DNA of 64,000 nt from the IMG/VR virus record IMGVR_UViG_3300030503_000212, positions 43,764 to 107,763 of that record; one strand, 5' to 3'. A model generated the notes under the pieces. That model was given only the letters and a program-made list of their open reading frames with translations, was not told where the DNA came from and did no database searches. How positions within the stretch are numbered: position 1 is the first letter of the stretch; the number at the start of each line of letters is the position of its first letter. This DNA comes from a virus. This document shows positions 11,890 to 54,703 of this stretch, piece by piece. The translations under genes and the position numbers were made by a program.

Positions 11890-11946
11890 TGATTTACCTG
11901 TGCAGCGAGCAATCGCTCTCTAGAACATTCTTATGAGGGCGTGACG

Positions 11947-13440
11947 ATGGCAGCTCCTACAGGACCCATTCAACTCATCGGTACAATAGAAAGTTCCTTG
12001 GGAGTTCCGTTCAACGGGGCTTTTCTATTGCAGTTGAATACATACGGCTCCGTTTTACCATCAGCCGGTGGTGGGAAATACATCGGAGTCAGTCCAACTA
12101 CTGTTGTACGTGTTCCGGTTATCAATGGACAGGTACAGGCATCACCCCAGATTTATGTTTGGGGCAACGATGCAATGCAGGGCAATACGTGGTACATCGT
12201 CAAGCAGATAGACAGTAACGGCAACATTCTGATGACGATTAATGTGCTGATCGTTGGCAGCTCTCCCTATGATTTGGGATCGATGCAGCCCTATCAGACA
12301 GCCGGACTTCCGTCGTATCTGGCTATCGGGCAGCTCCTGGGCCAACCCGGCCCTCCATTAGTCCCGTACGGCGCGTGGTCGTCAACAGTAAATTACCCTG
12401 CTGGAGCTGTGGTCTCGAACGGTGGCCAATCCTTTATCAGCTTGCAGGCCGGAAACATTGGATACCCTCCTACGCTTGCAGGATCAGCTCCATTCTGGAT
12501 GCTACTGGCGAACGGCTATCAGCTCAATGAGTACATTGCATCGATCACATTCACAGGCGTTCAGACAATGGTCGTTACACATGGGCTTAATACGCTAACG
12601 CCTATCATCCAAGCATTTGTAGCATCTGGAACGACGCAGTACACAGCAAATGTTATTGACGCGAACAATATTCAGCTCAAGTGGTTTGGAGCAGCGGTTG
12701 TTCAGTTGCTCGTTGCCACACCCTCCGAGTTCATCAACACAGCAGCCTCATACAACGCATCAGCTCTGCCGACTGGTGGACTTGTAGCCCATTGGCCGAT
12801 GAACGAGGGTTCAGGATCGACGTTCTACAACACACAAAATAGTGCGAACAACATTACAGCCACTGGTGTTACCTGGGCTGATCTACCGGGTACATCTCAG
12901 CTTGCTCCAACATTTGCTGATGGTAGTTCTGCTGTTGCTGCTGTCGTCGATCCTCTAGCGGACTTTGATGGGTCAAAACCGTTCTGTGTTTCGATGTGGA
13001 TTGAGAACAATGCGCCGGATACACACATCAGAAATCTGTTGACAGGTTTGTTTCCAGGTGGGATCGCAAACCAGAACACAACGGGTTTCAACTGGACGAT
13101 TCAAGGGGCAACCGGGTCTCTCGTTCGGAATTTCAGTACACCCACAACAGTCGGCACGCTTTATCACATTGTTTGGATGTATGACGGATCAAAGAGTGCT
13201 GGAGCTGTCAGCTCGTTGACCGGATTGTTCCGATACGTCAATGGTGCGGCTGATAATAATACGTTCGGACCGACAACCAGCAATCTCACAGTCACACAGT
13301 TCTCAGCCACGCCCGTTACATTGGGTGGCGCTGCTAGTGGCGGCTTTGTGGGCAAGATTGCTGGTCTCCGTGTCTACAACAGAATGTTGCAGGCTTTTGA
13401 AATCACACAGCTTTATCAAGCTGGACCGGCAGGAGTGTAG
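11947..13440 (+). CDS. Tail-associated protein with LamG-like lectin domain
   Basis: A 497-residue protein with GAGGG before the ATG at 11947. The N-terminal ~130 residues form a beta-rich domain. Residues about 140-185 contain YGAWSSTVNYPAGAVVSNGG, like a small carbohydrate-binding (CBM5/12-type) module. From about residue 280, GLVAHWPMNEGSGSTFYN begins a concanavalin/LamG-like jelly roll that ends with GKIAGLRVYNRMLQAFEI, a typical final strand. It probably lies on the tail and binds surface glycans; the tailspike gene follows directly. Confidence 0.75.
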   Translation: MAAPTGPIQLIGTIESSLGVPFNGAFLLQLNTYGSVLPSAGGGKYIGVSPTTVVRVPVINGQVQASPQIYVWGNDAMQGNTWYIVKQIDSNGNILMTINVLIVGSSPYDLGSMQPYQTAGLPSYLAIGQLLGQPGPPLVPYGAWSSTVNYPAGAVVSNGGQSFISLQAGNIGYPPTLAGSAPFWMLLANGYQLNEYIASITFTGVQTMVVTHGLNTLTPIIQAFVASGTTQYTANVIDANNIQLKWFGAAVVQLLVATPSEFINTAASYNASALPTGGLVAHWPMNEGSGSTFYNTQNSANNITATGVTWADLPGTSQLAPTFADGSSAVAAVVDPLADFDGSKPFCVSMWIENNAPDTHIRNLLTGLFPGGIANQNTTGFNWTIQGATGSLVRNFSTPTTVGTLYHIVWMYDGSKSAGAVSSLTGLFRYVNGAADNNTFGPTTSNLTVTQFSATPVTLGGAASGGFVGKIAGLRVYNRMLQAFEITQLYQAGPAGV

Positions 13441-13443
13441 ATC

Positions 13444-15816
13444 ATGTCCATCGTAGCGTTTCCAGCACAAGTTTCGAGCACTACTTTCTATGCCAGTCAA
13501 TGCGGCTGTGCCCTTGATGGTGTGACAGATGATGCTCCAATCATCAATGCCATTCTCGCTACAGCAACACAGGCTACGCCCATTAAGTTCATCATTGATG
13601 GCTTAGCAGCGGTATCTGACCTTACGATCTCGCCCCTTGGTTTCACAACGATTGAGGGTTTGGGTTGGTCAACAGGATTTATCCGGATTCCCTCGGGTAC
13701 GTTCTCCAATAACGGTATCAGCATTGGGCCGTATTCGTTATCCAATCCTTATCAGGATGGACAGACTGTTGCGTCGCCTGCAATAACAGCGAACTACATT
13801 GAGTTGCGTGATTTCAGTATGAATCTGAATTTCCCATCGGGGAATCCGTCGTTTACAGCAGCGAATTTCCCTGTGTCTGGCGCACCACCTCATGCAACGT
13901 TTGGAATTTGTCTATTCGGTTGCAATGAAGTATTGATCGATCATCTCCTGCTTTTAGCACCTCCGTACTACAACATTCTTGTGTCGAACTGCACGAACGT
14001 AACGGTCCAAAATTGTGATCTCTTGTCCAACACGCAACTGCGTGATGGTGTTCACATTGACGGGCCGTCATCCAACATCAAGGTGCTCAATTGCGATATT
14101 GCAACTGGCGATGACGGTATCGCGATTAACTGCCCTGAGGGTGCTGGTGGTGATATCAACGGTGTGTTCATTGACAACTGCCGGTTCACAGCTGCGGGTA
14201 GCTTGGTGCGTATTTACACGTCAACATCCGCACTCCCAGGAGCTATTTATCATGCCCGCAACATTGTGATTTCGAACTGCACTGGAACATCACTCGGTGC
14301 GCCGATTCATATTGGTGTTGAGGGTGCTCCAGCATCTACTGTGGAGCAGGTGCATGATGTCATTGTGAGCAATTGCAGCTTTGGATCAAATGCAGCTGAG
14401 AGTGTTGGTTTCCTTTCAATCAACATGCCGTTCGATCTGGTCATCATCCGTGACTGCATATATTTGCCGACAACAACGAGCCCGGTGGTGGCTGTACAGT
14501 CGCTTTCGACAGCAGGTACATTGGAACTGCGCAACCTCAAGGTCATGCGGAATGCAGATGGCAACGCGGCACCTGCGTTTATTTCACTGCAAAACTGCAC
14601 GATTAACAAATTGGTCCTTGATATTAGTGTTGAGGATTTGGTGGGGAGTTCCTACACACCACTCCCAACAGTAATAACTGCATCAGGAGCATTCGGCAGC
14701 GGCAGCGGCTCAACAATAAGTCATCTTGTCATTGAGCGAATCGGTACGCTCCATATTACTCAGCTATTTGACTCTACGTTTGGACCCGCCTTTACGGTTA
14801 CATCCGTTGAGGGCAGCGGTGTTCTGAACACAGGCTGGGAGATACCAGATGCCAACATGGGCAACAACTCGCCTTATATCTCCAGCACAGAGGCCGGGGA
14901 TGTGTCGATCAAAATTAGTGGTGTGCCTTATGCGTTTCAGTTCTCATCCGGGGTTGCTCCGCTTGCATTCAATTTGCTGTCTAGCGGAGTAAATCTTTCA
15001 GCAGCGATGGTCCTGGGTAGTGGGGCGAGCCTGACAGCGAGCGGTGGTGGTTCGATTAGTGCTAACGAGCTGAACGGTGCGCTTGTTCCCGCATCGAGCG
15101 CGGTACTAGGCTCAAATTCGTTGGGACAGCTTACCAATAACTCAGCGTCGTTCCCATCGTTGACAGGGACCAACCTGCACACAGGGGCTAATACGTTTTC
15201 TGGTGTGGTGACGGGAGCAGGCTTTACGGCAACCGGTGCAGCCCCACTCCTTATCCCCAATAGCACGTTCATCGAAGCACTAACGAGCGGTGGCGGCGCT
15301 GCTGCAATCATTGGGGTGAGTGGTGGCGCGGGCAATGCACTGTTGGTGGGATCTCCAGCAGCAACTGGCACAGGCGGTGTTCATCTTTACGCCAGCGGTA
15401 CGGATGCGTTGGATGTCACAAGTCTTGGTGTATTTTCCAACGTGCCGCTCACAGCTCCGAATATTAATCAGGTTTTGTATGCCGAGTTTTTCCTGGGGCT
15501 AACTGGAGCAGTCCTTTCGACGACTGGTGCAATAACACCAAGTACGGGTTTATATCGGATATCGACGCAGGTTCGAGTTGTTGGTGGAGCTACAGCTGGG
15601 ACTGTTGTGTTGACAGCGAACTGGACGGACAGCCATGCAGTTGAGGGCAATACGATGGCGAATGTTTCCTTAGTAAACGCGTCTAATACGTTCCAAAGTA
15701 TTATGGTGATAGCCAACGGCGGAACAGCTTTGAAATTCAATACCACATGCGCCGCGACAGGATCTTATTCGTATGATCTTGCAGTCATGTTCGAGTTAAT
15801 ACCCGCAGTAGCTTAG
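13444..15816 (+). CDS. Tailspike with right-handed beta-helix (GH28-like)
   Basis: A 790-residue protein three bases after the LamG-like gene. The N-terminal half has repeated turns of a parallel beta-helix (VLIDHLLLL, VTVQNCDLL, IKVLNCDIA, VFIDNCRF), with RDGVHIDG and ATGDDGIAIN resembling the NTDG and DD motifs of polygalacturonases (GH28). The last ~110 residues (TGAVLSTTGAITPSTGLYRIS and on) look like a C1q/TNF-type jelly roll, often a trimerisation or receptor-binding end. It probably depolymerises a host surface polysaccharide. Some GH28 catalytic residues do not line up clearly. Confidence 0.75.
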   Translation: MSIVAFPAQVSSTTFYASQCGCALDGVTDDAPIINAILATATQATPIKFIIDGLAAVSDLTISPLGFTTIEGLGWSTGFIRIPSGTFSNNGISIGPYSLSNPYQDGQTVASPAITANYIELRDFSMNLNFPSGNPSFTAANFPVSGAPPHATFGICLFGCNEVLIDHLLLLAPPYYNILVSNCTNVTVQNCDLLSNTQLRDGVHIDGPSSNIKVLNCDIATGDDGIAINCPEGAGGDINGVFIDNCRFTAAGSLVRIYTSTSALPGAIYHARNIVISNCTGTSLGAPIHIGVEGAPASTVEQVHDVIVSNCSFGSNAAESVGFLSINMPFDLVIIRDCIYLPTTTSPVVAVQSLSTAGTLELRNLKVMRNADGNAAPAFISLQNCTINKLVLDISVEDLVGSSYTPLPTVITASGAFGSGSGSTISHLVIERIGTLHITQLFDSTFGPAFTVTSVEGSGVLNTGWEIPDANMGNNSPYISSTEAGDVSIKISGVPYAFQFSSGVAPLAFNLLSSGVNLSAAMVLGSGASLTASGGGSISANELNGALVPASSAVLGSNSLGQLTNNSASFPSLTGTNLHTGANTFSGVVTGAGFTATGAAPLLIPNSTFIEALTSGGGAAAIIGVSGGAGNALLVGSPAATGTGGVHLYASGTDALDVTSLGVFSNVPLTAPNINQVLYAEFFLGLTGAVLSTTGAITPSTGLYRISTQVRVVGGATAGTVVLTANWTDSHAVEGNTMANVSLVNASNTFQSIMVIANGGTALKFNTTCAATGSYSYDLAVMFELIPAVA
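14711..14721 (-). repeat. Intragenic dispersed motif variant (reverse)
   Basis: CAACAATAAGT, in codons for Ser-Thr-Ile-Ser of the tailspike. Confidence 0.7.
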
Positions 15817-31683: not shown

Positions 31684-32021
31684 TGTATCTTTACATCTAC
31701 AAAGTGGCTGCGTGTGAGGAGTACCATGATGGCCTCTATGTTGTAGCAGCTGAAAGTGACGAGCGTGCCAGAGAGCTAATGCTTGAGCATGCTCGTATGG
31801 AATACGAAAAGGACGGTAGTGATTTTAATCGTTGTTCGTACAATCCGTTACTGGATTTCTACATGACGGAGGCTGAGGCGGAGGCGAGCCCGCGCTGTAA
31901 TGGTTATGATGATCCTGTTAGAAAAACATGGCGTGGTCCGCGTTGGGTGTACCAGACCATGCTTACAGTTGCATTCGGTACGCTTGAGGGTGTTGTAGCT
32001 TACGCAGAACATGAGGGGTAA
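31683..32021 (+). CDS. Hypothetical protein, 112 aa
   Basis: ATG at 31683 overlapping the previous TGA, GGAGAG upstream. Ferredoxin-like alternation in the first half (YLYIYKVAACEE, LYVVAAESDERARELML), an arrangement common to small phage proteins of unknown role. Ends two bases before the GT9 gene. Confidence 0.55.
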   Translation: MYLYIYKVAACEEYHDGLYVVAAESDERARELMLEHARMEYEKDGSDFNRCSYNPLLDFYMTEAEAEASPRCNGYDDPVRKTWRGPRWVYQTMLTVAFGTLEGVVAYAEHEG

Positions 32022-32023
32022 CG

Positions 32024-32857
32024 ATGTCTAGAAATACTGTTGTATTCAAATCCCAAATGTTAATGGGAGATGCAATTTATGTGTCAGCAGTAATTGGCCG
32101 ATACATGCGTGAGAATCCAGAGGATCGAGTTATTATTGAAACGCTGGATGAGTACCCTAAAGAGGTTTACTCTTGGCTCCCGGGACGACCGGAGATCACA
32201 TTTGCAACCGATACAGATTGCGATGTTCTTGTTGAATTTGATGTGACCGATGCCATGCACTCAGCAGTCAAAAAGGATCATGGTATCTGGCATGGGTTGG
32301 CCGACACAGCAAAGATCAGTGGCCTTTACAGACCGCAGCTTACTGCCGATGACATCCCGATATTAAACATTCCGCGAGTTGAGATTCCTGAGCAGTGGAA
32401 AGGGGCATTCGTCATCTGCCCGTTTAGTCGCAGTTGTACGAGCCACCAGGGACAACCGCCCAATAAAACACTCCCTACAGCTACGTGGTTGCCTTTGCTG
32501 CGGTTTCTGCGTCGCCGGGGTAAGGTTCTATTCGTTGGAGGACCCGACGACCGTATGCAGGGCTTTGCTATCGACGAATCCGAACGTATCGCCGGACTCC
32601 CACTTGTTATTGCAGCCAATGTGTTCAAAGAGGCACGCTGCATAATTAGTGTTGACAACGGACTAGCCAGAATATCGACACTAGTTGGAGCCAACACCGT
32701 TACGCTTATGCCGGAGTTCTTACCACTAGAGGTGTTTGCGCCTGCCAAATGGAACATAGGTAAGTCTCGCGTTGTCCAGATGACCTCTCAGATACCACCC
32801 TTGGCGTTTACAGCATCAATGAAACATCTATTGCGGATCTACGCGGAGGTGTTGTAA
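32024..32857 (+). CDS. Glycosyltransferase family 9-like protein
   Basis: A 277-residue GT-B protein. The N-terminus VVFKSQMLMGDAIYVSAVIG parallels the GDAil-t-P start of GT9 heptosyltransferases; the C-terminal half has TATWLPLLRFL, KVLFVGGPDDR, CIISVDNGLARISTLVGANTVTLM, matching the GGP and DNGxxHlAaalG donor-site motifs. GT9 enzymes usually add heptose to lipopolysaccharide; in a phage it may alter the host surface or modify virion or DNA. The usual Asp-x-Gly-x-x-His is DNGLAR here, so the donor site is altered. Confidence 0.7.
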   Translation: MSRNTVVFKSQMLMGDAIYVSAVIGRYMRENPEDRVIIETLDEYPKEVYSWLPGRPEITFATDTDCDVLVEFDVTDAMHSAVKKDHGIWHGLADTAKISGLYRPQLTADDIPILNIPRVEIPEQWKGAFVICPFSRSCTSHQGQPPNKTLPTATWLPLLRFLRRRGKVLFVGGPDDRMQGFAIDESERIAGLPLVIAANVFKEARCIISVDNGLARISTLVGANTVTLMPEFLPLEVFAPAKWNIGKSRVVQMTSQIPPLAFTASMKHLLRIYAEVL

Positions 32858-44747: not shown

Positions 44748-47700
44748 ATGGCCGATTTCAGTATGGATCAACTGCTGATGGCTTTCGACATCGACTTAAC
44801 GCCGATGAAATCGAAAGCTGCGGATGCTGACAAGATTATTGACGAGTTAGAGGCAAAATGGTCTAAGTCGTCGTCATCTATGGCGTCTGCCGGTCAGTCT
44901 GTTGCGGCATCCCAACAGGAAACGAGTGCTGCTGTGTCAGAGGTTGTCTCTCAGACGCAGCAAGCCGTTACTGCGAGTAGAGAACAGACTGTTGCGGCCA
45001 AAGAAACTACTGCTGAGGTTCGTCAACAGATTCTCCAGGCTCAGGCACGTAAAGCTGCACTGTCAGCAGAAACTGCTGAAATCACGAAACAGACAGCAGA
45101 GCTCCGCAAGCAGCGTTTGGAGACTGCAACATCCGGGTCAGCCGGTGAGGGTAAGAGCAAGGGTGAGGGTGGCGGATCTGGCGTCATGGGCGTTGCCGGT
45201 GCTGGAATCAAGGATGTCACCAAGGGCATCTTTGGTGAGGGCCTAGCTAGTGAGGTAGCCGCTGGTGCTATTGCTGGTGAGGGAATAGGTGCAGCTCTCG
45301 CACTTATCAATGAGGGACTCACTAAGTTCGTCGAAATGATGAAAGACGCTGTAGAGGAATCCAGCGAACTTGCCCAGGTCAAAGCACGGTTTACCGCGCT
45401 GGCTGAGGGTGCCGGATCTGAAATGCCGTCAGCTATGGATAAGATGCGCGATGCTACGCGTGGTCTGATTCCTGATATTGATCTTGCTCGCGCTGGTATC
45501 GCGGCATGGCAAACTGGGTTACACCTGTCTGCCGATCAAGTGTCAAAGTTTACAGGCGCTGTAGTAAACATGGCACTGCATATGGGACGCGATCCTGTGC
45601 AGGCGTTGAAAGCTGCTGAGCAAGCAATGGCGACGGGTCGTGCTGCAAGCCTAGCCTATGAGCTAGGCGTGAGTCGTGCATCACTTTCTCTTGAGGGAAT
45701 TGGGATGTCGGCACGCGGTGCTGCCGGTGCTATGACACAGACAGCTCACATGATGTCTGCTGTTGAGCAGATGTCTGCTAAAGCAGGTCCCGCGCAACTT
45801 ACCTTGGCCAACAGTATGCAAGTGCTTAAGGTTGCAACAGAAAGTATGTTCGAGGAATTTGCGGCTGGTTTTCAAGGATCAGCTGGTATCAAGCAGGTAG
45901 GTACCGTACTCACGGATATAGCCGCAAAGTTCCACGATCTATCAGATGAGGTAAAGCCGTTTGGACTTGCATTCGGCGAATCATTCGGAGCAGCAGCTGA
46001 CGGTTTAAAATCGATATTTGGTGCTTTGGGAGATGTCGTAAGTCTGTTCAGTAAGCTGTCCGGATTCTCAGAGATTTCCAAGCTATTTCACATTACCGGT
46101 CCTGATGGACAGGCAGTCAGTGGTTGGCGCTTGTTTGGGACAATTATTGTTGCGTTGGCTGGCAACATCGACATGATGGCGCGAGCTCTCAAAGATTCTC
46201 TTGACGTAGCACTGGCTGTGACAGATGCCAACATGCAACGAATGGCGGCTACATTCAAATTGGTTACAGACGATCTTATAGCTGTAGACTCAGCAATCGA
46301 TACTATGACAGGCCGTTCTGCCAAGCTCAAGGCTATGGAGGCTGATGTAAAGTCGTTTGGTGGCGAGGTCAAAAATCTCAGTCAGCGATTCCAAGACTGG
46401 CAAGACCATATGATTACGTCCATCATTCCTTTGGATGCGATTATCACGTGGTTTGAAAATCTTGTGCCTAAAATACGTGCTGCAAACGACGAGGTAGGCG
46501 AGTTCATCAAAAAGTTCTCCGGTTTTGAATATGTAGCCGGACTGCTGAAATCAATCCTATCCGGCAAGAGTATTTCTGATGCTATTTCTACGATGGATAA
46601 GCAGCTGGCGAATTCTGGCAATTCATACCAGAAAAGCATGACCGATGCGAACCAAAAAGTGGTTGCAGCAGTCAAAGCTGGGGCTAAGGACATGTCCAAT
46701 GCCGTGTCCGAGAACATGAATCGTATTAAGACAACACTAAGTGGTTCGGTTGAGGACAAGGCAACTCCAGATACTGTTGCACCGCCGAAACAGTTGCCGA
46801 ATACTGGCTTGATGGAGGAGCTGGCTAAGGCCAAGGAGAAAATGGAGGAGGCGCTGGCTAAAGCAGCGCTAGAGCGGCAGTTAGCTGACAATCAGGCAGA
46901 ACGTGATGCTAACGAATTGAGCTACAAGCAGGGTTTGGAAAGCCTTGAGGACTACATTGCTCAAAAGCGTGCGTTACAAGCCAAAGACTCAGCGGCGTCA
47001 TTGGCTCAAATCAATCTCGACGAGCGTGCTCAGCTTTCTGAGGCTAAAGAGGCGTTTGCAGCCAAGATGCAGCAGCGCTCGGTGCTTGAGTCACAAATAA
47101 GTGCTGTTTCCACATCCAAGGACGGCGACGCAAAAAGCCGCAGCAATCAGATCACGGATCTATCGTCTCAGCTGTCACAATACAGCGGTGCCGATGAGAT
47201 GTTAGCCGATCAGCTCAAAGCAATTACTGCTGAGGCTGATGCTAAGCGCTACGCACTAACAAAGAGCGACGGTACCAAGCTCGCTGATCTACAGGCACAA
47301 TTGGACGCCGCGACCATGGCAGCGGCCCGAAAGACTGCTGACGGATTGCTCAAGCTCACGACGGATCGTATCGACAAGCAGCAAGCAGCAGAGAAAGCTC
47401 AATTCGAGCAAGGCCGGGTTTCTCCTGCTGACTATCAAACATCGCAGCAGAATGCCGCTGTACAAACGGCACAAGCGCAAGGCCAGCATGCTCAGAGTGT
47501 ACTTGCGGCGTCACCCCAAACGCCTGCATCATTGGCTGCATACAACGATTCGATTGCCCAAGCTGCTCAGTCTTTACAAGAGAAAGTCACGCAGATTTAC
47601 AGTAGCGCGACGACCGAACAGCTACAGTTCATTCAAAATGTGTTTGATCGTCAAGAGAAAGCTATCGACGTACAGTTAGCGTTCATCAAACAGTATGGGT

Positions 47701-49958
47701 ATCAGTTCACAACTGGATCTGATGCTGCCGCACTGTTGCAGGCTGGAATCGCAGCAGCTAGTAAAGAGTTGCAGGCATACGAGGCCACATTCCAGCAGCT
47801 CAACAGTAATCCAGATACACAGTTTGATGCTCAGTGGCAAGAGGTTGTAGACAAAACGCAACAGGCTTTTGACAAGCTGCAACAGTACAAGTTGAGCTTG
47901 GCTGAGACAGTGAATATTGCTACACCATTGGGCAGCATTTGGGACTCCCTGGGTAAGGGATTGTCAACACTATTTGCGAATGCTGGGCCTCAGACTTATT
48001 CGATGGCTACAGCAAATGCGGGCGGTGCTAATCGTGGTGCTGAATCGTTCAGAACTGTGTCTAATCCACGAGCTCAATTTGCAGATATTGGTGAGTCTTT
48101 ATCTGCTGGCGGCGGTATGCTTTCGAGTTTGGCTGCTACCAACGAAAAGATCAAGAATCTGACACACCCTCAGCAGCTCGATCCGGTCATGCAACAGATG
48201 CATGATCTAACGTTGTCGTCCAGCACATCAATCAAGACAGCGGCTGATGCATTTGGTGGTTCTACAGGGACACTTACAACAAACTTTCAGTCCCTTAGCG
48301 ATGTAGTGACAAAACTTGTCGGCCAGTTCAATGACTTTTTGGGTGGCAAGCCTGCATCGACGACTGCCAGCACGAGTACGCCGAGTATGAGTGGATTGGG
48401 AGTCCATGACGTAATCCCGGGCACGAGCATTCCCAGTACCGGTACCACGGGTTTGACGCCTTATATAGCGGCTCCTGAGGGCAGAGCTGTTCCGGGTTCG
48501 TCCGCACCCTTTTCTGCGTCGCCGTTGGGCATGCCTAGCTCTGCTGAGATCATGGCCGGTGGTGATGAGGGCGCGTCGCTAGATACAACGGATTCCACGA
48601 CAAACTCAATGATTGCTGAAAAGCCTATGCCGTCATTCGCTAACTCAGGAGCAGTGCCCAGCATGGGAGGCACAGCAGCAGATTCAACAGCTAAATTCGC
48701 ATCGGGGCTTGGTATTGCTGTGTCCACACTGACATCGTTTGTGGGAGCTATAACGAGTGCCAAGAGTGCTATCTCAGGAGCTTTTGCTGGAGGTGCTGGA
48801 GGTGCTGCTATCGGATCACAGGCCAGCTCAGCATTGGGCGGCTCTACGGGGAACGCAGCGAGCGCCGCTATGGGCATCTCTGGGTCATTGAGTGCTGCTA
48901 TGCCTGCTATCGGTGCAGGGTTGGGTGTCATCATGGGCGTGTTCATGGGCGAAAAAAATGCCATGGTGCAAACGGAGTTGACGGATCTAAAAAACACATA
49001 CACCCAAATGCAAGAGGCGTACTCGTCAGGCAACGCCACACTGCAACAGACAATTTCTCAGCTGGAGACATTGATTGCCGAGGCTCAGGCAGACATGGCC
49101 AATAGCAAAAAGGGCAGTTCACAGTTTCAGTCTCTTATTACGCAGTACAACCAACAGCTGCAACAGTATGAGGACCAAGCTCAGACTTTGATGATTCAGC
49201 TGAATCAACAGGTCAAGCAATTAGTGTTGCCGAATGAGGGTGTTGACTACACGAGCTATATCAGTTCGCTACAACAGATTGTGCAACAATACGAGGCATT
49301 TGCCGGTGCTGCGAGCACGGCAGCTCAATCTCTCCAGGCGCAACAGTATTTGCAGGAATCATTGGCAAGTCAGGTACAGCAGTGGTCGCAGCAGATGCAG
49401 CAGGATGAAATCAACGCAGTACAAAGTGCATTGCAGCTCAATCAGCTCACATTGCAGTATCAGCAGCTGTTGCAGAATACAGCACAGACTGAGCGCGGCA
49501 TTTTGGAACAGGGCGTTCTAACTCGTCAACAGACTTTTGCTCAGTCCAAGGCGCAACAGCTGGCTCAGACACAGTATCAGGCTGGATTACAAGAGGATCA
49601 AATGGAGCAGCAGATTCTGTTGACGCAGGCACAAGTAAGTGCGGCATCTCAGGTATTTGATCTTGCGACTACGCGTGTCGGTCTAGAGTCACAGCTCTTG
49701 ACGTTGCAGGAGAGCGCTGCAACACGTTCTGAGCAGAGTGTGCAGGCGCTGGCTAACTTGTTGCAGGCGATGGGTGCTAATGGTCAGGGCGTCGTCAGTA
49801 ACAACTCTGCAACACCCACAGCTAACAATTTCATCACCCAACTGCTTGCACTGTTGGCTGGAAACTCGAATGCCAGCTCATCGACTATCATGGGCTTGCT
49901 GGCACAATACGAACAGTACACATCGTCCGGTTTGGGCGTGAATGGATCGACACTCTAA
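44748..49958 (+). CDS. Tape measure protein
   Basis: A 1736-residue protein directly after the chaperone. Long Ala/Gln/Lys/Glu-rich coiled coils (for example residues about 60-125, 700-760, 1430-1660), a Gly/Ala-rich hydrophobic segment around residues 1315-1410 (GLGIAVSTLTSF, GGAGGAAIG, AGLGVIMGVFMG) likely to interact with the host membrane, and a Gln-rich C-terminus. At about 0.15 nm per residue it predicts a tail near 260 nm. It sets tail length and may help DNA entry. Confidence 0.9.
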   Translation: MADFSMDQLLMAFDIDLTPMKSKAADADKIIDELEAKWSKSSSSMASAGQSVAASQQETSAAVSEVVSQTQQAVTASREQTVAAKETTAEVRQQILQAQARKAALSAETAEITKQTAELRKQRLETATSGSAGEGKSKGEGGGSGVMGVAGAGIKDVTKGIFGEGLASEVAAGAIAGEGIGAALALINEGLTKFVEMMKDAVEESSELAQVKARFTALAEGAGSEMPSAMDKMRDATRGLIPDIDLARAGIAAWQTGLHLSADQVSKFTGAVVNMALHMGRDPVQALKAAEQAMATGRAASLAYELGVSRASLSLEGIGMSARGAAGAMTQTAHMMSAVEQMSAKAGPAQLTLANSMQVLKVATESMFEEFAAGFQGSAGIKQVGTVLTDIAAKFHDLSDEVKPFGLAFGESFGAAADGLKSIFGALGDVVSLFSKLSGFSEISKLFHITGPDGQAVSGWRLFGTIIVALAGNIDMMARALKDSLDVALAVTDANMQRMAATFKLVTDDLIAVDSAIDTMTGRSAKLKAMEADVKSFGGEVKNLSQRFQDWQDHMITSIIPLDAIITWFENLVPKIRAANDEVGEFIKKFSGFEYVAGLLKSILSGKSISDAISTMDKQLANSGNSYQKSMTDANQKVVAAVKAGAKDMSNAVSENMNRIKTTLSGSVEDKATPDTVAPPKQLPNTGLMEELAKAKEKMEEALAKAALERQLADNQAERDANELSYKQGLESLEDYIAQKRALQAKDSAASLAQINLDERAQLSEAKEAFAAKMQQRSVLESQISAVSTSKDGDAKSRSNQITDLSSQLSQYSGADEMLADQLKAITAEADAKRYALTKSDGTKLADLQAQLDAATMAAARKTADGLLKLTTDRIDKQQAAEKAQFEQGRVSPADYQTSQQNAAVQTAQAQGQHAQSVLAASPQTPASLAAYNDSIAQAAQSLQEKVTQIYSSATTEQLQFIQNVFDRQEKAIDVQLAFIKQYGYQFTTGSDAAALLQAGIAAASKELQAYEATFQQLNSNPDTQFDAQWQEVVDKTQQAFDKLQQYKLSLAETVNIATPLGSIWDSLGKGLSTLFANAGPQTYSMATANAGGANRGAESFRTVSNPRAQFADIGESLSAGGGMLSSLAATNEKIKNLTHPQQLDPVMQQMHDLTLSSSTSIKTAADAFGGSTGTLTTNFQSLSDVVTKLVGQFNDFLGGKPASTTASTSTPSMSGLGVHDVIPGTSIPSTGTTGLTPYIAAPEGRAVPGSSAPFSASPLGMPSSAEIMAGGDEGASLDTTDSTTNSMIAEKPMPSFANSGAVPSMGGTAADSTAKFASGLGIAVSTLTSFVGAITSAKSAISGAFAGGAGGAAIGSQASSALGGSTGNAASAAMGISGSLSAAMPAIGAGLGVIMGVFMGEKNAMVQTELTDLKNTYTQMQEAYSSGNATLQQTISQLETLIAEAQADMANSKKGSSQFQSLITQYNQQLQQYEDQAQTLMIQLNQQVKQLVLPNEGVDYTSYISSLQQIVQQYEAFAGAASTAAQSLQAQQYLQESLASQVQQWSQQMQQDEINAVQSALQLNQLTLQYQQLLQNTAQTERGILEQGVLTRQQTFAQSKAQQLAQTQYQAGLQEDQMEQQILLTQAQVSAASQVFDLATTRVGLESQLLTLQESAATRSEQSVQALANLLQAMGANGQGVVSNNSATPTANNFITQLLALLAGNSNASSSTIMGLLAQYEQYTSSGLGVNGSTL

Positions 49959-52900
49959 TGCTGAGAATGATTGTCAAAAACGACAACGGGACATTCGACT
50001 ATTCAAACTATGTCGACTGGACAACCTTGCAGATCACCAGTCAGCTCTCTGTGCCCACACAGATGCAGGTTGTGTTCTATCAGTACGATCAGAATTTCAT
50101 TCCGCCATTCGAGCGCTGCTACGTTCAGATATGGAGCGATAAAGACGGCAAGACCCTGTTTACTGGGTTTGTTGCAGCAACACCCGACATTCAGTTTGTA
50201 GCTGTAGGCAGTTCTCAGCAACAATTTTTCAAATACTCCGTAACGTGTACCTCGGATGAGTATCTGTTGAATTTCAAGTCGCCGCCATACATCCCAGCGA
50301 TCATCAACCAGACACAGGGGCAGATCCTAGCTCAGCTTGCAGAGATCCTAGCTCCCGGGTTTTATGACACTTCGTTGATTCAGCCGGGCTTTCTGGTGCC
50401 GTACTATACTTGGGACCCAACGCAGACGTGGTCAATGGTGGCCAAGACGTTTGCTGACTCTGCACGTTATTTCTACACATGCAAAGATAAAAAGATCGTC
50501 TATGCCCCGTACGGCCAAGGCGATCTGGGAATTTCTTATGACGAGGTAAATACACCCTCTACACGCTGGAATGCGGCCAAGCTACAGACTACGGTTCTCC
50601 AGGTACCAACCGTCAACGATGTACTAGTGGTTGGTGATGTTGAGGCGGGCAACTCTCATACGGACTATTTCATCGGAGACGGGTTTACAGGCGAATTCCC
50701 ACTTACTTATGCCACATTCCAGTCGCGTTCAGCATTGCTACTTGAGGACGACTTTACTCAAGATTCAATGAACACGCAGAACTGGACGCTGAACGATCCG
50801 CAAAACAATTTCAATTTTAGTGTTGGAGCCTTGAATCTGGTTTCGCCTGCTACCGGTCCTGCATCCACTGGACAGCTCATTGCGAACAACGGTGTTGAGC
50901 TTGCTGGGGGTATGGAATTTCAGCACGGCGAAGTTCAGTTCAATGATGTATCGAGTGGAGAGATTGGCGGTCTCTATTTTGATGCATCGGTCATAGATCA
51001 GTTTTGTGCGTTTGAAATATCGACGCCGGGCAGCGTAACGCTTACAGCATCTGGGGCTGGCGGTATCGCTATGCAGCCAAGTTTGTCCGGAGCACTCTTG
51101 GGACCGCAGATCATATCGCAGCCCAATCATCACTATGTGCTCAACACAAAGATTCAGTGCCCATCCGAGACACGATTTCAACAAGTGTTCGCTACCAAGG
51201 ATGGTACGTACTTTGCAGGTCAAGCACAGTCGATGTTCGGTAATGTCACATTCTCTATCGAGGATGTGGATATCGGAGCAACTTACAATCAGTCGTTGAC
51301 TGGTATCTACAATGATCCAGTTTCAACGACAACAGTATTTACAGCGTCAGGTGTGCTGTTGCCAGCTTATGCAGCGTATGCGCTGATTAAGAATGGGCGT
51401 CAAAATCTCACACTTAACTACTGTTTGTTGAGCAAGACCCCAGCAGGATCACTTTCTATTGCGGGCAGCACATCAGGAGCGTTCTTACCCACGGGTGCGA
51501 TCCTGCCATTTACAGGACCTGAGTCGGAATACGCTGGTGCTGTGTCACCCTACTTGAGCGGTCAGATTGTGTTGTCATCAGGCATCACAGGATCGTTGGC
51601 AGCTCCTACACCTCTGTATCCGGCGAATCAGCATACGCTGGGATTTGGGCTTGATGAACAAGACGCATCAGTCATCCAGGGAGCTAACAATAATAATGTT
51701 GATACCTTGGGGTTCTATCTCACCACTACGCCTGCAGCTGGATCGCGTGTGGCATTTACGAGCAATGAGTCACAACGAGCCGTTGCTCGCGTTGTAGACA
51801 TGGTGGATGTCGACTATGAGGCCGGGCTTGTAGGGGACGATGGGCATCGAAGTGCCATTGTCTCGAACATGAGTCCATTGCCCCGTACATCCGAGGATTG
51901 CGACGCAGCATGCCAAGCCTATATTTACGACCGCGAACAGATTTTCTATAACGGAACGTATACGGCTGAGAGCGATCTGTTCCAGCAGGACATCAACGAC
52001 TTTCCGTACTATCCATTTGCAGGTCGCAACATCAACATAAACTGCCCAGCACGAAATATTGTGGACACAGACTATCTGGTTACACAGGCAGTGTTGAGTG
52101 TTTTAGAGGCTGGGAGTGAAACACTAAGTTGGGCGTTCACATTCGGCGCTGATACTCGCACTGAGAAACTGTTGAGCGCATTCACGCCGTCACAACCAAC
52201 GAATATCCTAACGACAATCGGCGGCGGCAGCACATCACAGCAAGCTGGAGACACAGCTAACATTCCATTGCCACAAGCACTAGCTCAGGTTGTTACCGGT
52301 TCGTACTTGCCCGATCTTATCGACGTGAGTGCTTACGCGATTGTGGACACATCCGTCTACATCACAGTCAATAGTCCTTTGGTGGCAGCTGTACCACCTG
52401 TCAGTGTCACATACCCAGTAGCTCCGGGCGGTCCCGGTTTCCCATACGCCCCGCCGATCATCTCGCGACCAATCCAAGCGATGTCTTTGGCGCGATCTCA
52501 AGCTCAGGCTATTGTGGGCACGTGGTCTCCTGTAAGCGGCTCTGGAGGTGTAGGTGTTGTCTCACAGCCTGTTCAGCGTATCGGACCAGCACAGTCCACA
52601 CCACCAGCACCGCCAATCATTGCAGCACCAGGTCAGACGTATGTCGAAGTTCGCCTCTCAGATCAGAACTGGGGACAGAACAGTGCCAATCTTATTGCAC
52701 GTTATCAGGTAAGCTCGTTCACACTGTTAAAAAATAACTACGATCAAACGTGGTACATGAGGCTTGTGCAGTTCGATGAGAATGACAATCCTTACATGTT
52801 CAGTCGCCGGACCAAAGTAATACGCGTCGTGTATCCATTCAGGCCCACATCGCCAACGATTGTGTTTGCAACTACTGCCGACATCCAGTTAGATTTCTCA

Positions 52901-54313
52901 GGAGATCAGCGTAACATTTACGGAATCGAAGTTAGGGCAACAGACGACGCAACGATCCTGTTCCAACAGTCGGCTAATGACACGACCGATATGTATTTCA
53001 ATCTGCAACAGTATTTGCCGGAGTTGGCACTTATTGCTGAGAACACATCGGCGTTTACCCCAACCGGAACATTCTTGCGTGGATATACCGCACGATTCTT
53101 TAATCATCAGTGGCTGTACTCTGTGCCGACAGAGATTTATATCCCACCACCACCTGCACCTGAGCTTAGTATCGGTGTGCGGTTCTCCCAGATGTTGCAG
53201 ATCAATTCAGATATCATTACGCGTGACGATATTGCTCAACAGACTTTGGAACTTTCTTTTGACAACTTTGCATCAGTTTGGCAGACAGTTCAGAGCTCCG
53301 GCCAGCCGGGATCGTGGGCAATCACTGTACCGAGTACGGGCGATGTATGGGCTCAGTCGTATCGCAATGATCTGTTGGGATCTGGTGCAATGTCTGCTGT
53401 CCTGCATATTCCCCAAGGCCAGCTGATTGCAAGTGATTACTTGGCAACACAGGGATCTGTACCACCTGTTGTAACGAACAACGTCAATTCGCTGTTCTCA
53501 TATTTTGCAACGAGCGGTTCACTTACTATTGTCTCGTTGCCATTTGGTATTTCGTTTCCCAACGGTGCTGTGTCTGAGTTGCCATCTGTGACGGGCATAT
53601 ACACCACAGCCATCGGAGCTACAGGTACAGGATTGCAGCCGTCCACGGTGTATAACTATTTCCCGGCGATTGCTAATGTATTGACGGCTGACGAAACGGT
53701 AGAAATCAATGGACTGTATGCAACGGTTGCACCTACTGTCATCCAAGCTCTTATAGGCGATGGGATGGTCGTTCTGTCAAATGGGGCGTTGCAGGCGACG
53801 ACAGCGGCATCAGGTAGCAGTGGAGGCACATCGGGCGGCGGCAGCTATCACCCGGGTACAGGTGGGAGTGGTGCCTGCACTGAGGAGTCAGAACTAATTA
53901 CGATGGCCGATGGTAGTGATCGGCGCGGCGGCGACTTGATGGCAGGTCATCTCCTCAAAGGACCAAAAACTGTTGCGGGCAAGATTCGTACGATCACTAA
54001 GGTTCCACATACGCCTTTGTTTCTGATTACAACAGTAACTGGGCGACATGTTAAAGCATCAGAATCTCACGCATTCAAAATCAACAAGCGATGGGCGTCT
54101 GTAGGCGAGATGATCGAACGTTTTGCCGAGGGCGAAATATTGACTGCAACTACTGTTGACGGAGATGAGCAGATACTTTCTATTGATTATGCCGGATCTG
54201 GTACGGTAGTATGCCTCAAATTAGTAAAGGGTCAACACGTCTATTATGCAGGTGGATTTGAATCGCACAATGCTGTGTACAAGCCCGCAATACCATCATC
54301 GGAGACTGCGTAA
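49958..54313 (+). CDS. Tail-tip/hub protein with C-terminal Hint domain
   Basis: A 1451-residue protein overlapping the tape measure stop (TAATG). N-terminal region is a distal-tail/hub-like beta domain (IVKNDNGTFDYSNYVDWTTL); a lectin-like insert follows (about residues 265-435, EDDFTQDSMNTQNWTLNDPQ); then further beta domains to about 1290. After a Gly/Ser linker, residues 1307-1438 resemble a Hint (intein/hedgehog) domain: Cys1307 at CTEESELITMADGS, KASESHAFKI with the block-B-like His, RWASVGEMIERFAEGE, and the end VYYAGGFESHN. Thirteen residues (AVYKPAIPSSETA) remain after His-Asn. Self-cleavage is inferred. Confidence 0.75.
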   Translation: MLRMIVKNDNGTFDYSNYVDWTTLQITSQLSVPTQMQVVFYQYDQNFIPPFERCYVQIWSDKDGKTLFTGFVAATPDIQFVAVGSSQQQFFKYSVTCTSDEYLLNFKSPPYIPAIINQTQGQILAQLAEILAPGFYDTSLIQPGFLVPYYTWDPTQTWSMVAKTFADSARYFYTCKDKKIVYAPYGQGDLGISYDEVNTPSTRWNAAKLQTTVLQVPTVNDVLVVGDVEAGNSHTDYFIGDGFTGEFPLTYATFQSRSALLLEDDFTQDSMNTQNWTLNDPQNNFNFSVGALNLVSPATGPASTGQLIANNGVELAGGMEFQHGEVQFNDVSSGEIGGLYFDASVIDQFCAFEISTPGSVTLTASGAGGIAMQPSLSGALLGPQIISQPNHHYVLNTKIQCPSETRFQQVFATKDGTYFAGQAQSMFGNVTFSIEDVDIGATYNQSLTGIYNDPVSTTTVFTASGVLLPAYAAYALIKNGRQNLTLNYCLLSKTPAGSLSIAGSTSGAFLPTGAILPFTGPESEYAGAVSPYLSGQIVLSSGITGSLAAPTPLYPANQHTLGFGLDEQDASVIQGANNNNVDTLGFYLTTTPAAGSRVAFTSNESQRAVARVVDMVDVDYEAGLVGDDGHRSAIVSNMSPLPRTSEDCDAACQAYIYDREQIFYNGTYTAESDLFQQDINDFPYYPFAGRNININCPARNIVDTDYLVTQAVLSVLEAGSETLSWAFTFGADTRTEKLLSAFTPSQPTNILTTIGGGSTSQQAGDTANIPLPQALAQVVTGSYLPDLIDVSAYAIVDTSVYITVNSPLVAAVPPVSVTYPVAPGGPGFPYAPPIISRPIQAMSLARSQAQAIVGTWSPVSGSGGVGVVSQPVQRIGPAQSTPPAPPIIAAPGQTYVEVRLSDQNWGQNSANLIARYQVSSFTLLKNNYDQTWYMRLVQFDENDNPYMFSRRTKVIRVVYPFRPTSPTIVFATTADIQLDFSGDQRNIYGIEVRATDDATILFQQSANDTTDMYFNLQQYLPELALIAENTSAFTPTGTFLRGYTARFFNHQWLYSVPTEIYIPPPPAPELSIGVRFSQMLQINSDIITRDDIAQQTLELSFDNFASVWQTVQSSGQPGSWAITVPSTGDVWAQSYRNDLLGSGAMSAVLHIPQGQLIASDYLATQGSVPPVVTNNVNSLFSYFATSGSLTIVSLPFGISFPNGAVSELPSVTGIYTTAIGATGTGLQPSTVYNYFPAIANVLTADETVEINGLYATVAPTVIQALIGDGMVVLSNGALQATTAASGSSGGTSGGGSYHPGTGGSGACTEESELITMADGSDRRGGDLMAGHLLKGPKTVAGKIRTITKVPHTPLFLITTVTGRHVKASESHAFKINKRWASVGEMIERFAEGEILTATTVDGDEQILSIDYAGSGTVVCLKLVKGQHVYYAGGFESHNAVYKPAIPSSETA

Positions 54314-54703
54314 ATGCTTAGAATTCGCTACATGATCGTGGATCACCCAGCAGCATCAGACGGGCAGCTGCACGTAGCCAACGGCAAAATGCAGCACGTG
54401 CCGTTTGTCCATCCTTATGTCCCCCTTTACCATTGGGTACGGATGGACGACTCAACAATATTTCTCAAAGCTACCTACTACAACCTCAATCATAAGAAAC
54501 TCATGGATGAGCCTAAGGTAACGGTTTTACCGTCGACGTTCAGTCGTCAAACGGTGAAGTCCGCTATTGACGAGCAAAATAATCCTCATCATCATGACGC
54601 ACTGCATCATCACCAAGTTCCTTATACCGATCAGACAACAACGTCGGATCTAGTGGACTGGTTTGCTAAATACGAAAGCGGGATTTTCGATCATGAGGTC
54701 TAG
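54314..54703 (+). CDS. His-rich hypothetical protein, 129 aa
   Basis: Begins directly after the tail-tip stop. Contains HHHDALHHHQVP (about residues 92-103), a possible metal-binding stretch, and an aromatic N-terminal half (HPYVPLYHWVRMDD). Could be a small tail component from its position. No family recognised. Confidence 0.5.
   Translation: MLRIRYMIVDHPAASDGQLHVANGKMQHVPFVHPYVPLYHWVRMDDSTIFLKATYYNLNHKKLMDEPKVTVLPSTFSRQTVKSAIDEQNNPHHHDALHHHQVPYTDQTTTSDLVDWFAKYESGIFDHEV

What the first reader, a model, noticed from the sequence alone, without database searches (positions are those of the whole stretch)
53876..54313. Intein-like Hint domain at the C-terminus of the tail-tip protein
Residues 1307-1438 begin with Cys, have SESHAF as a block-B-like His, and end GGFESHN, the typical intein end, leaving only 13 residues that start with Ala. 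Ala at +1 cannot complete splicing, so N- or C-terminal self-cleavage, or an ester-linked conjugation as in bacterial intein-like domains, is more likely. Hint domains on phage tail tips are known in outline; what this one releases or attaches is not. It could shed the C-terminal peptide or attach the tip to another protein.
Basis: partly seen in the sequence, partly recalled or inferred. Interest (0 to 1): 0.62.

Follow-up and report, generated by a model that had tools for sequence, protein, structure and literature searches.

The report
Self-processing Hint domain ending phage tail protein
A large tail protein of an uncultivated phage ends in a real intein-like (Hint) domain that probably cuts itself off or passes its thioester to an amine; related domains recur on unrelated phage tail proteins, nearly always with a lysine right behind them, which points to a simple untested chemistry.

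Summary
Residues 1307-1438 of the 1451-aa protein (49958-54313), encoded directly after the tape-measure-like gene, form a Hint domain. An intein profile built without it scores it 49.7 bits (best of 2000 shuffles 9.6). A phage TerL intein aligns over residues 1-132. The AlphaFold2 model matches inteins, BIL domains and Hedgehog. Cys1, block-B His and C-terminal His-Asn are present; +1 is Ala; a Gly/Ser linker precedes it; 13 residues follow.

It is not an ordinary intein. Relatives of the tail protein lack it, the last 13 residues are not conserved, there is no endonuclease, and the F-block Asp is Cys1419. The same phage carries a normal intein in its RecA-like gene (Cys1, Ser+1). Features tested fit an A-type BIL. 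"Ala+1 cannot splice" is too strong: A-type BILs can ligate through an amine, though cleavage dominates.

Pattern searches found many similar Hint domains in viral contigs, several ending unrelated tail proteins. Lys occupies +1 or +2 in 47/47 clusters, and in 12/12 of a sample chosen only by the N-terminal motif. The window's domain is an outlier, with Lys at +4. Best reading: autocatalytic removal of the Hint via the Cys1307 thioester. Activity is untested.

The parts
49958..54313 (+). Tail-tip-like structural protein, 1451 aa, that carries the Hint domain at its C-terminus
   Evidence: ORF. Directly after the 1736-aa ORF 44748-49958 (tape-measure by position and length). Homologous to Tunturiibacter siphophage Tunturi_4 gp15 'virion structural protein', which also follows a tape-measure gene, and to L013/L014 and L015.
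53816..53875 (+). Gly/Ser-rich linker, residues 1287-1306 (SSGGTSGGGSYHPGTGGSGA)
   Evidence: 75% G/S/P against 23% in the whole protein.
53876..54271 (+). Hint domain, residues 1307-1438
   Evidence: Profile, pairwise and structure matches.
53876..53878 (+). Cys1307, block A nucleophile (Cys1)
   Evidence: Aligned with Cys1 of the Cruella intein and of the viral-contig Hint domains.
54068..54070 (+). His1371, block B His of SESH
   Evidence: Aligned with the block-B His in all 9 inteins and all 44 related domains.
54212..54214 (+). Cys1419 at intein position F:4, where class 1 inteins have Asp and class 3 inteins a nucleophilic Cys
   Evidence: Alignment with 4o1r and with the intein set; the register needs a one-residue insertion in the following turn.
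54266..54271 (+). His1437-Asn1438, block G end
   Evidence: Sequence and alignments.
54272..54310 (+). 13-residue C-terminal tail AVYKPAIPSSETA, Ala at +1, first Lys at +4
   Evidence: Sequence. It contains the GGAG at 54301-54304, a probable ribosome-binding site for the next ORF, ATG 54314.
44748..49958 (+). Tape-measure-like protein, 1736 aa, upstream neighbour
   Evidence: ORF. No PHROG match; assigned by length and position, with the same order as Tunturi_4.

Best explanation
The last 145 residues are a C-terminal autoprocessing module of the A-type BIL kind, preceded by a flexible linker: Hint domain plus short expendable tail. Proposed steps: (1) Cys1307 attacks the Ala1306-Cys1307 bond (N-S acyl shift), helped by His1371, and makes a thioester; (2) with no Cys/Ser/Thr at +1 the thioester is not passed to a side chain there but is released by water or an amine, giving a mature 1306-residue tail-tip protein; (3) Asn1438 cyclises with help from His1437 and frees the 13-residue tail. 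In a minority of molecules, or with a suitable amine partner, the thioester may end as an amide or isopeptide instead. Shown here: the domain, its catalytic residues and predicted fold, its modular addition to the tail protein, and its recurrence on other phage tail proteins. Inferred: that the chemistry runs, and which product dominates.
For: Sequence: 49.7 bits to an intein profile built without it, against at most 9.6 for 2000 shuffles; pairwise matches to TerL and DnaB inteins in register. Fold: AlphaFold2 pLDDT 79, pTM 0.72; Foldseek hits gp41-1 intein E 2.5e-9, NpuDnaB intein, BUBL BIL2, Hedgehog 1at0, C. thermocellum BIL 2lwy. Catalytic residues are intact despite a long branch (1.75 changes per column), which is unlikely for a dead relic. 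Modularity: the closest tail-protein relatives (33.8% identity over 2-751 for L013, about 26% for L015 and Tunturi_4) have no Hint, and homology fades by about residue 1060. The processed length, 1306 aa, is close to the full lengths of L015 (1308) and Tunturi_4 (1319), weak support only. Architecture recurs: L141 has a tape measure, then a 208-aa ORF, then a 1547-aa tail protein ending in Gly linker + Hint + IKYN, with no similarity to this protein outside the Hint; L134 has a baseplate wedge gene followed by a DUF4815 protein with Hint, whose Hint matches this one, E 2e-8. Literature: BILs lack the +1 nucleophile; the A type keeps His-Asn and mostly cleaves (PMC4031507; PMC7664689).
Against: No activity data. 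The F-block Asp is replaced by Cys1419, which could slow or change the first or last step. No homologue close enough for a selection test was found. The AlphaFold2 alignment contained intein rows, so the model is not fully independent of the sequence evidence. This domain is an outlier to the recurrent viral-contig group in the tree and in lacking Lys at +1/+2.
Confidence: 0.62

Rival explanations
1. Amine ligase: the Cys1307 thioester is passed to a lysine or other amine (on the released tail, a neighbouring tip subunit or another tail protein), so the Hint leaves the tip covalently joined by an amide or isopeptide bond, as the Tetrahymena BIL2 domain does.
For: BIL2 forms a Lys isopeptide (PMC8616854) and is among the best structural matches (6y75 and 6tmm). 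In the related viral-contig Hint domains Lys is at +1 or +2 in 47 of 47 clusters against 3.3% background, and in 12 of 12 clusters of a sample chosen by the N-terminal motif alone. The window tail has a Lys at +4.
Against: The window domain lacks the conserved +1/+2 Lys. Ligating a 4-14-residue tail has no obvious use. No partner protein was identified. The Lys could have another role.
Confidence: 0.2
2. A decayed or recently mutated intein near the 3' end of the tail gene that no longer splices and is carried as a passive C-terminal extension.
For: The same phage has a normal intein. +1 is Ala. The F-block Asp is missing. Among single sequences the two best matches are TerL inteins.
Against: Cys1, block-B His, F-block His, His and Asn are all kept on a long branch. 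A Gly/Ser linker, not a conserved extein, precedes it. The 13-residue tail is not homologous to the C-termini of relatives. No endonuclease remnant. The same arrangement recurs in many phages.
Confidence: 0.12
3. Non-catalytic use: the Hint stays on the tip as a folded binding or capping module.
For: Nothing direct; it would explain tolerance of the lost +1 nucleophile.
Against: Retention of the full catalytic set, which a purely structural domain would not need.
Confidence: 0.06

Closest known systems
A-type bacterial intein-like (BIL) domains (e.g. C. thermocellum BIL, 2lwy)
   Same: Hint fold, Cys1, block-B His, C-terminal His-Asn, no Cys/Ser/Thr at +1; in a variable part of a host protein; no endonuclease (PMC4031507, PMC7765530).
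   Different: Here it is the last domain of a phage tail protein with only 13 residues behind it and Cys at F:4. Membership in the A-type clade by sequence was not tested against the original BIL set.
Class 1 mini-inteins of phages (Corynebacterium phage Cruella/Zion TerL intein; NpuDnaB; gp41-1)
   Same: Same blocks A, B, F, G in the same order over 132 residues; closest single sequence and fold.
   Different: Those have C/S/T at +1 and conserved exteins on both sides. Here +1 is Ala and the C-terminal flank is a short unconserved tail.
BIL2 of the Tetrahymena BUBL1 polyubiquitin-like locus
   Same: Among the top structural matches (6y75, 6tmm); a precedent for thioester transfer to Lys (PMC8616854).
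   Different: BIL2 sits between two ubiquitin-like domains; here the C-terminal flank is 13 residues and the nearest Lys is at +4.
Uncharacterised Hint domains with Lys at +1/+2 in viral contigs, several at the C-terminus of tail proteins (e.g. L141, L134, L083, L049)
   Same: In the tail-protein examples, C-terminal Hint after a Gly-rich linker, short tail, no +1 nucleophile, F-block Asp missing.
   Different: Those have Lys at +1/+2 and Lys/Arg commonly at F:4; the window domain has Lys at +4, Cys at F:4 and falls outside their clade in a weakly supported tree.

Membership tests
Hint superfamily | Hint fold | tested here: met
   AlphaFold2 model and Foldseek: TM 0.86 by target length to gp41-1 intein, E 2.5e-9; Hedgehog 1at0 E 8e-7.
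Hint superfamily | Blocks A, B, F, G in order | tested here: met
   Full-length profile matches, 50 and 43 bits.
Class 1 splicing intein | Cys/Ser/Thr at +1 of the C-extein | tested here: not met
   Ala1439.
Class 1 splicing intein | Inserted in a conserved site, with both exteins recognisable in intein-free homologues | tested here: not met
   Linker upstream; the 13-residue tail has no counterpart in Tunturi_4, L013 or L015.
Class 3 intein | No Cys/Ser at position 1, Cys at F:4, Trp B:12, Thr G:5 | tested here: not met
   Cys at F:4 is present, but Cys1 is also present, and B:12 is Phe and G:5 is Ser.
A-type BIL | Cys1 and C-terminal His-Asn with no nucleophile at +1 | tested here: met
   definition from PMC4031507.
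A-type BIL | Located in variable, non-conserved part of a host protein | tested here: met
   Tail-protein homology fades by about residue 1060; relatives lack the domain; definition from PMC7765530.
A-type BIL | Sequence clusters with characterised A-type BILs | not tested
   No characterised BIL sequence set was at hand; only the fold comparison with 2lwy.
A-type BIL | Auto-cleavage, with some ligation | not testable with these tools
   Needs expression.
Viral-contig Hint domains with following Lys | Lys at +1 or +2 | tested here: not met
   First Lys at +4, against 47/47 and 12/12.
Viral-contig Hint domains with following Lys | C-terminal Hint after a Gly-rich linker on a tail protein, as seen in several members | tested here: met
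   Linker 75% G/S/P; gene order as in L141. Not every member of that group is C-terminal or on an identified tail protein.

The most novel reading that the evidence does not exclude
Phages use C-terminal Hint domains as self-removing ligases on tail proteins: the Cys1 thioester is transferred to a conserved neighbouring lysine (or, here, another amine), leaving tail-tip or fibre subunits covalently joined by an isopeptide or amide bond while the Hint is expelled. The window's domain would be a divergent example with a changed acceptor.
Probability: 0.2. Interest if true: 0.8.

Novelty: new variant of a known kind. Interest (0 to 1): 0.54.

Why it matters
Self-processing of phage tail proteins by Hint domains was not found in the papers searched here (an open-access subset), yet the arrangement turns up in many environmental phages and is missed by the curated intein models for this sequence. 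If active, it is an energy-free way to mature, trim or covalently join tail proteins. The lysine that follows nearly all related domains gives a direct test of whether the thioester is passed to an amine, and such domains could be useful protein-ligation tools.

Tried and rejected
Ordinary splicing intein: rejected (Ala+1, no conserved C-extein). Class 3 intein: rejected (Cys1 present, no WCT set, only Cys F:4).

A search for YYAGGFxxHN in viral contigs gave three inteins in other genes and no sister domain; YAGGFx[S/T]HN gave none. Direct searches for relatives of the domain or of the whole protein in viral and genome contigs gave none; an alignment query gave only TerL inteins. Phage-record hits in Rhizobium phage RHph_I1_6 and ctQRb9 are on the strand opposite to the annotated genes and are chance.

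The structure model of residues 1-534 failed (pLDDT 35), so the hub fold was not tested. Pfam Herpes_UL73 and zinc-finger matches are noise. Trans-splicing between the tail Hint and the RecA-like intein was considered and dropped: both are complete.

Full report
What is there. The window is bases 43764-107763 of a 107,763-base virus record. The ORF 49958-54313 encodes 1451 aa and starts on the last base of a 1736-aa ORF (44748-49958). Its relatives are gp15 of the Tunturiibacter siphophage Tunturi_4, which lies shortly after a gene annotated as tape measure, and proteins in three viral contigs. Gene order and homology make it a tail-tip or central tail protein. No PHROG or Pfam family confirms this, and a structure model of residues 1-534 failed.

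The Hint domain. Residues 1307-1438 read CTEESELITMADGS...GRHVKASESHAFKINKRW...GQHVYYAGGFESHN, then AVYKPAIPSSETA and stop. A profile from nine other phage inteins scores it 49.7 bits; the best of 2000 shuffles scores 9.6. Single-sequence searches give the TerL intein of Corynebacterium phage Cruella over residues 1-132 and the NpuDnaB mini-intein over 46-132. The predicted structure (pLDDT 79, pTM 0.72) is closest to gp41-1 and DnaB inteins, then BUBL BIL2, Hedgehog and the C. thermocellum BIL. The alignment given to the predictor held intein rows, so this is support, not wholly independent proof.

Active-site inventory. Cys1, block-B His with Ser at -3, F-block His, and Ser-His-Asn at the end are present. 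Position F:4, Asp in class 1 inteins, is Cys1419. In the phiCbK-type TerL intein, which starts with Pro, F:4 is also Cys in this alignment. The window domain has both Cys1 and Cys F:4, an unusual pair; B:12 is Phe and G:5 is Ser, so it is not a class 3 intein. Position +1 is Ala. The register at F:4 needs a one-residue insertion in the next turn and is likely, not certain.

Not an ordinary intein. The same phage carries a full-size intein in a RecA-like gene (record positions 31843-32694; Cys1, His-Asn, Ser+1, with a long endonuclease-like insert) that the Pfam intein model finds; the tail Hint is not found by that model. The relatives of the tail protein lack the Hint, and homology fades by about residue 1060. 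A Gly/Ser-rich linker precedes the domain (75% G/S/P). The codons of the 13-residue tail hold a GGAG 9 bases before the next ATG, so part of the tail may exist only for that.

It is part of a recurrent pattern. The matches form 54 clusters. Seven have S/T/C at +1 and no Lys and look like splicing inteins. The other 47 have Lys at +1 (29) or +2 (18), although the pattern did not ask for it; Lys makes up 3.3% of the residues behind. A second sample, chosen only by the start motif GGCPAPW, gave 23 full-length Hint domains in 12 clusters, all with His-Asn and all with Lys at +2, and ten of twelve with no more than 60 residues behind; some loci are shared with the first sample. In these domains F:4 is mostly Lys or Arg. 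The His, Ser-His-Asn and Cys1 columns of that group were fixed by the search patterns and are not independent evidence. Several of these domains sit on tail proteins: L083 (tail assembly protein I), L134 (DUF4815 protein next to a baseplate wedge gene), L049 (weak match to a tail-fibre connector), and L141, where a tape measure, a 208-aa ORF and then a 1547-aa tail protein ending in Gly linker, Hint and IKYN mirror the window. Others are on proteins of unknown function, and some are internal rather than C-terminal. This protein's only similarity to the L134 and L141 proteins is the Hint region (E 2e-8 and a marginal 0.006), so the module is joined to unrelated tail proteins. In GenBank phage records the two queries tried hit only one unannotated faecal phage.

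Place of the window domain. It scores similarly on the intein profile (50 bits) and on the profile of the Lys group (43 bits). In a tree it is a long branch outside the Lys group, with weak support. It shares the linker, the short tail and the missing F-block Asp with that group but not the Lys at +1/+2; its first Lys is at +4.

Mechanism. A-type BILs have Cys1 and His-Asn but no +1 nucleophile; they mostly cleave and can ligate when an amine attacks the thioester (PMC4031507); one review says they cannot ligate (PMC7765530). Tetrahymena BIL2 transfers its thioester to a Lys side chain (PMC8616854). I therefore take removal of the Hint through the Cys1307 thioester, with loss of the 13-residue tail by Asn cyclisation, as most likely (0.62), amine ligation next (0.2), a decayed intein third (0.12), and a retained non-catalytic domain last (0.06). 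The full catalytic set is kept on a long branch, which argues against decay. No step of the chemistry is shown.

Novelty. Hint domains, BILs and phage inteins are known; BFVD names several 'Hint domain containing protein' entries in uncultured phages. Ten literature searches of an open-access library found no description of Hint self-processing in phage tails; this does not exclude subscription papers. I rate it a new variant of a known kind. The most interesting by-product is the conserved lysine of the related group, which the window's own domain does not share.

Noticed in passing
G000:C1:31573-33543 (L017:11573-13543), upstream of the window: RecA-like gene with a full-size intein (31843-32694; Cys1, His-Asn, Ser+1, insert resembling an HNH endonuclease) placed within the Walker A (P-loop) stretch; found by the Pfam intein model.
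   Followed up: partly
L023-L142 and L143-L201 (viral contigs), e.g. L141:7301-11941, L134:2055-6683, L083:9504-10823: A widespread set of non-splicing Hint domains, several ending tail proteins, with Lys at +1 or +2 after the terminal Asn in 47/47 clusters and 12/12 of a sample chosen by the N-terminal motif.
   Followed up: partly
window 54212-54214 (residue 1419): Cys at intein position F:4 together with Cys1: two possible thiol nucleophiles, or a possible redox-sensitive disulfide, in one Hint active site.
   Followed up: no
window 54301-54316: Probable ribosome-binding site GGAG inside the codons of the 13-residue tail, 9 bases before the ATG of a 129-aa His-rich ORF with no family match.
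   Followed up: no
L019:6980-8002 and L021:3040-4107: TerL inteins that start with Pro and have Cys at the F:4 position (phiCbK-type and a metagenomic relative), resembling class 3 chemistry without the usual Trp.
   Followed up: no
window 11941-15816: Two ORFs (499 and 790 aa), the second with a weak match to tail spike proteins: probable tail fibre or spike genes far from the tail module.
   Followed up: no
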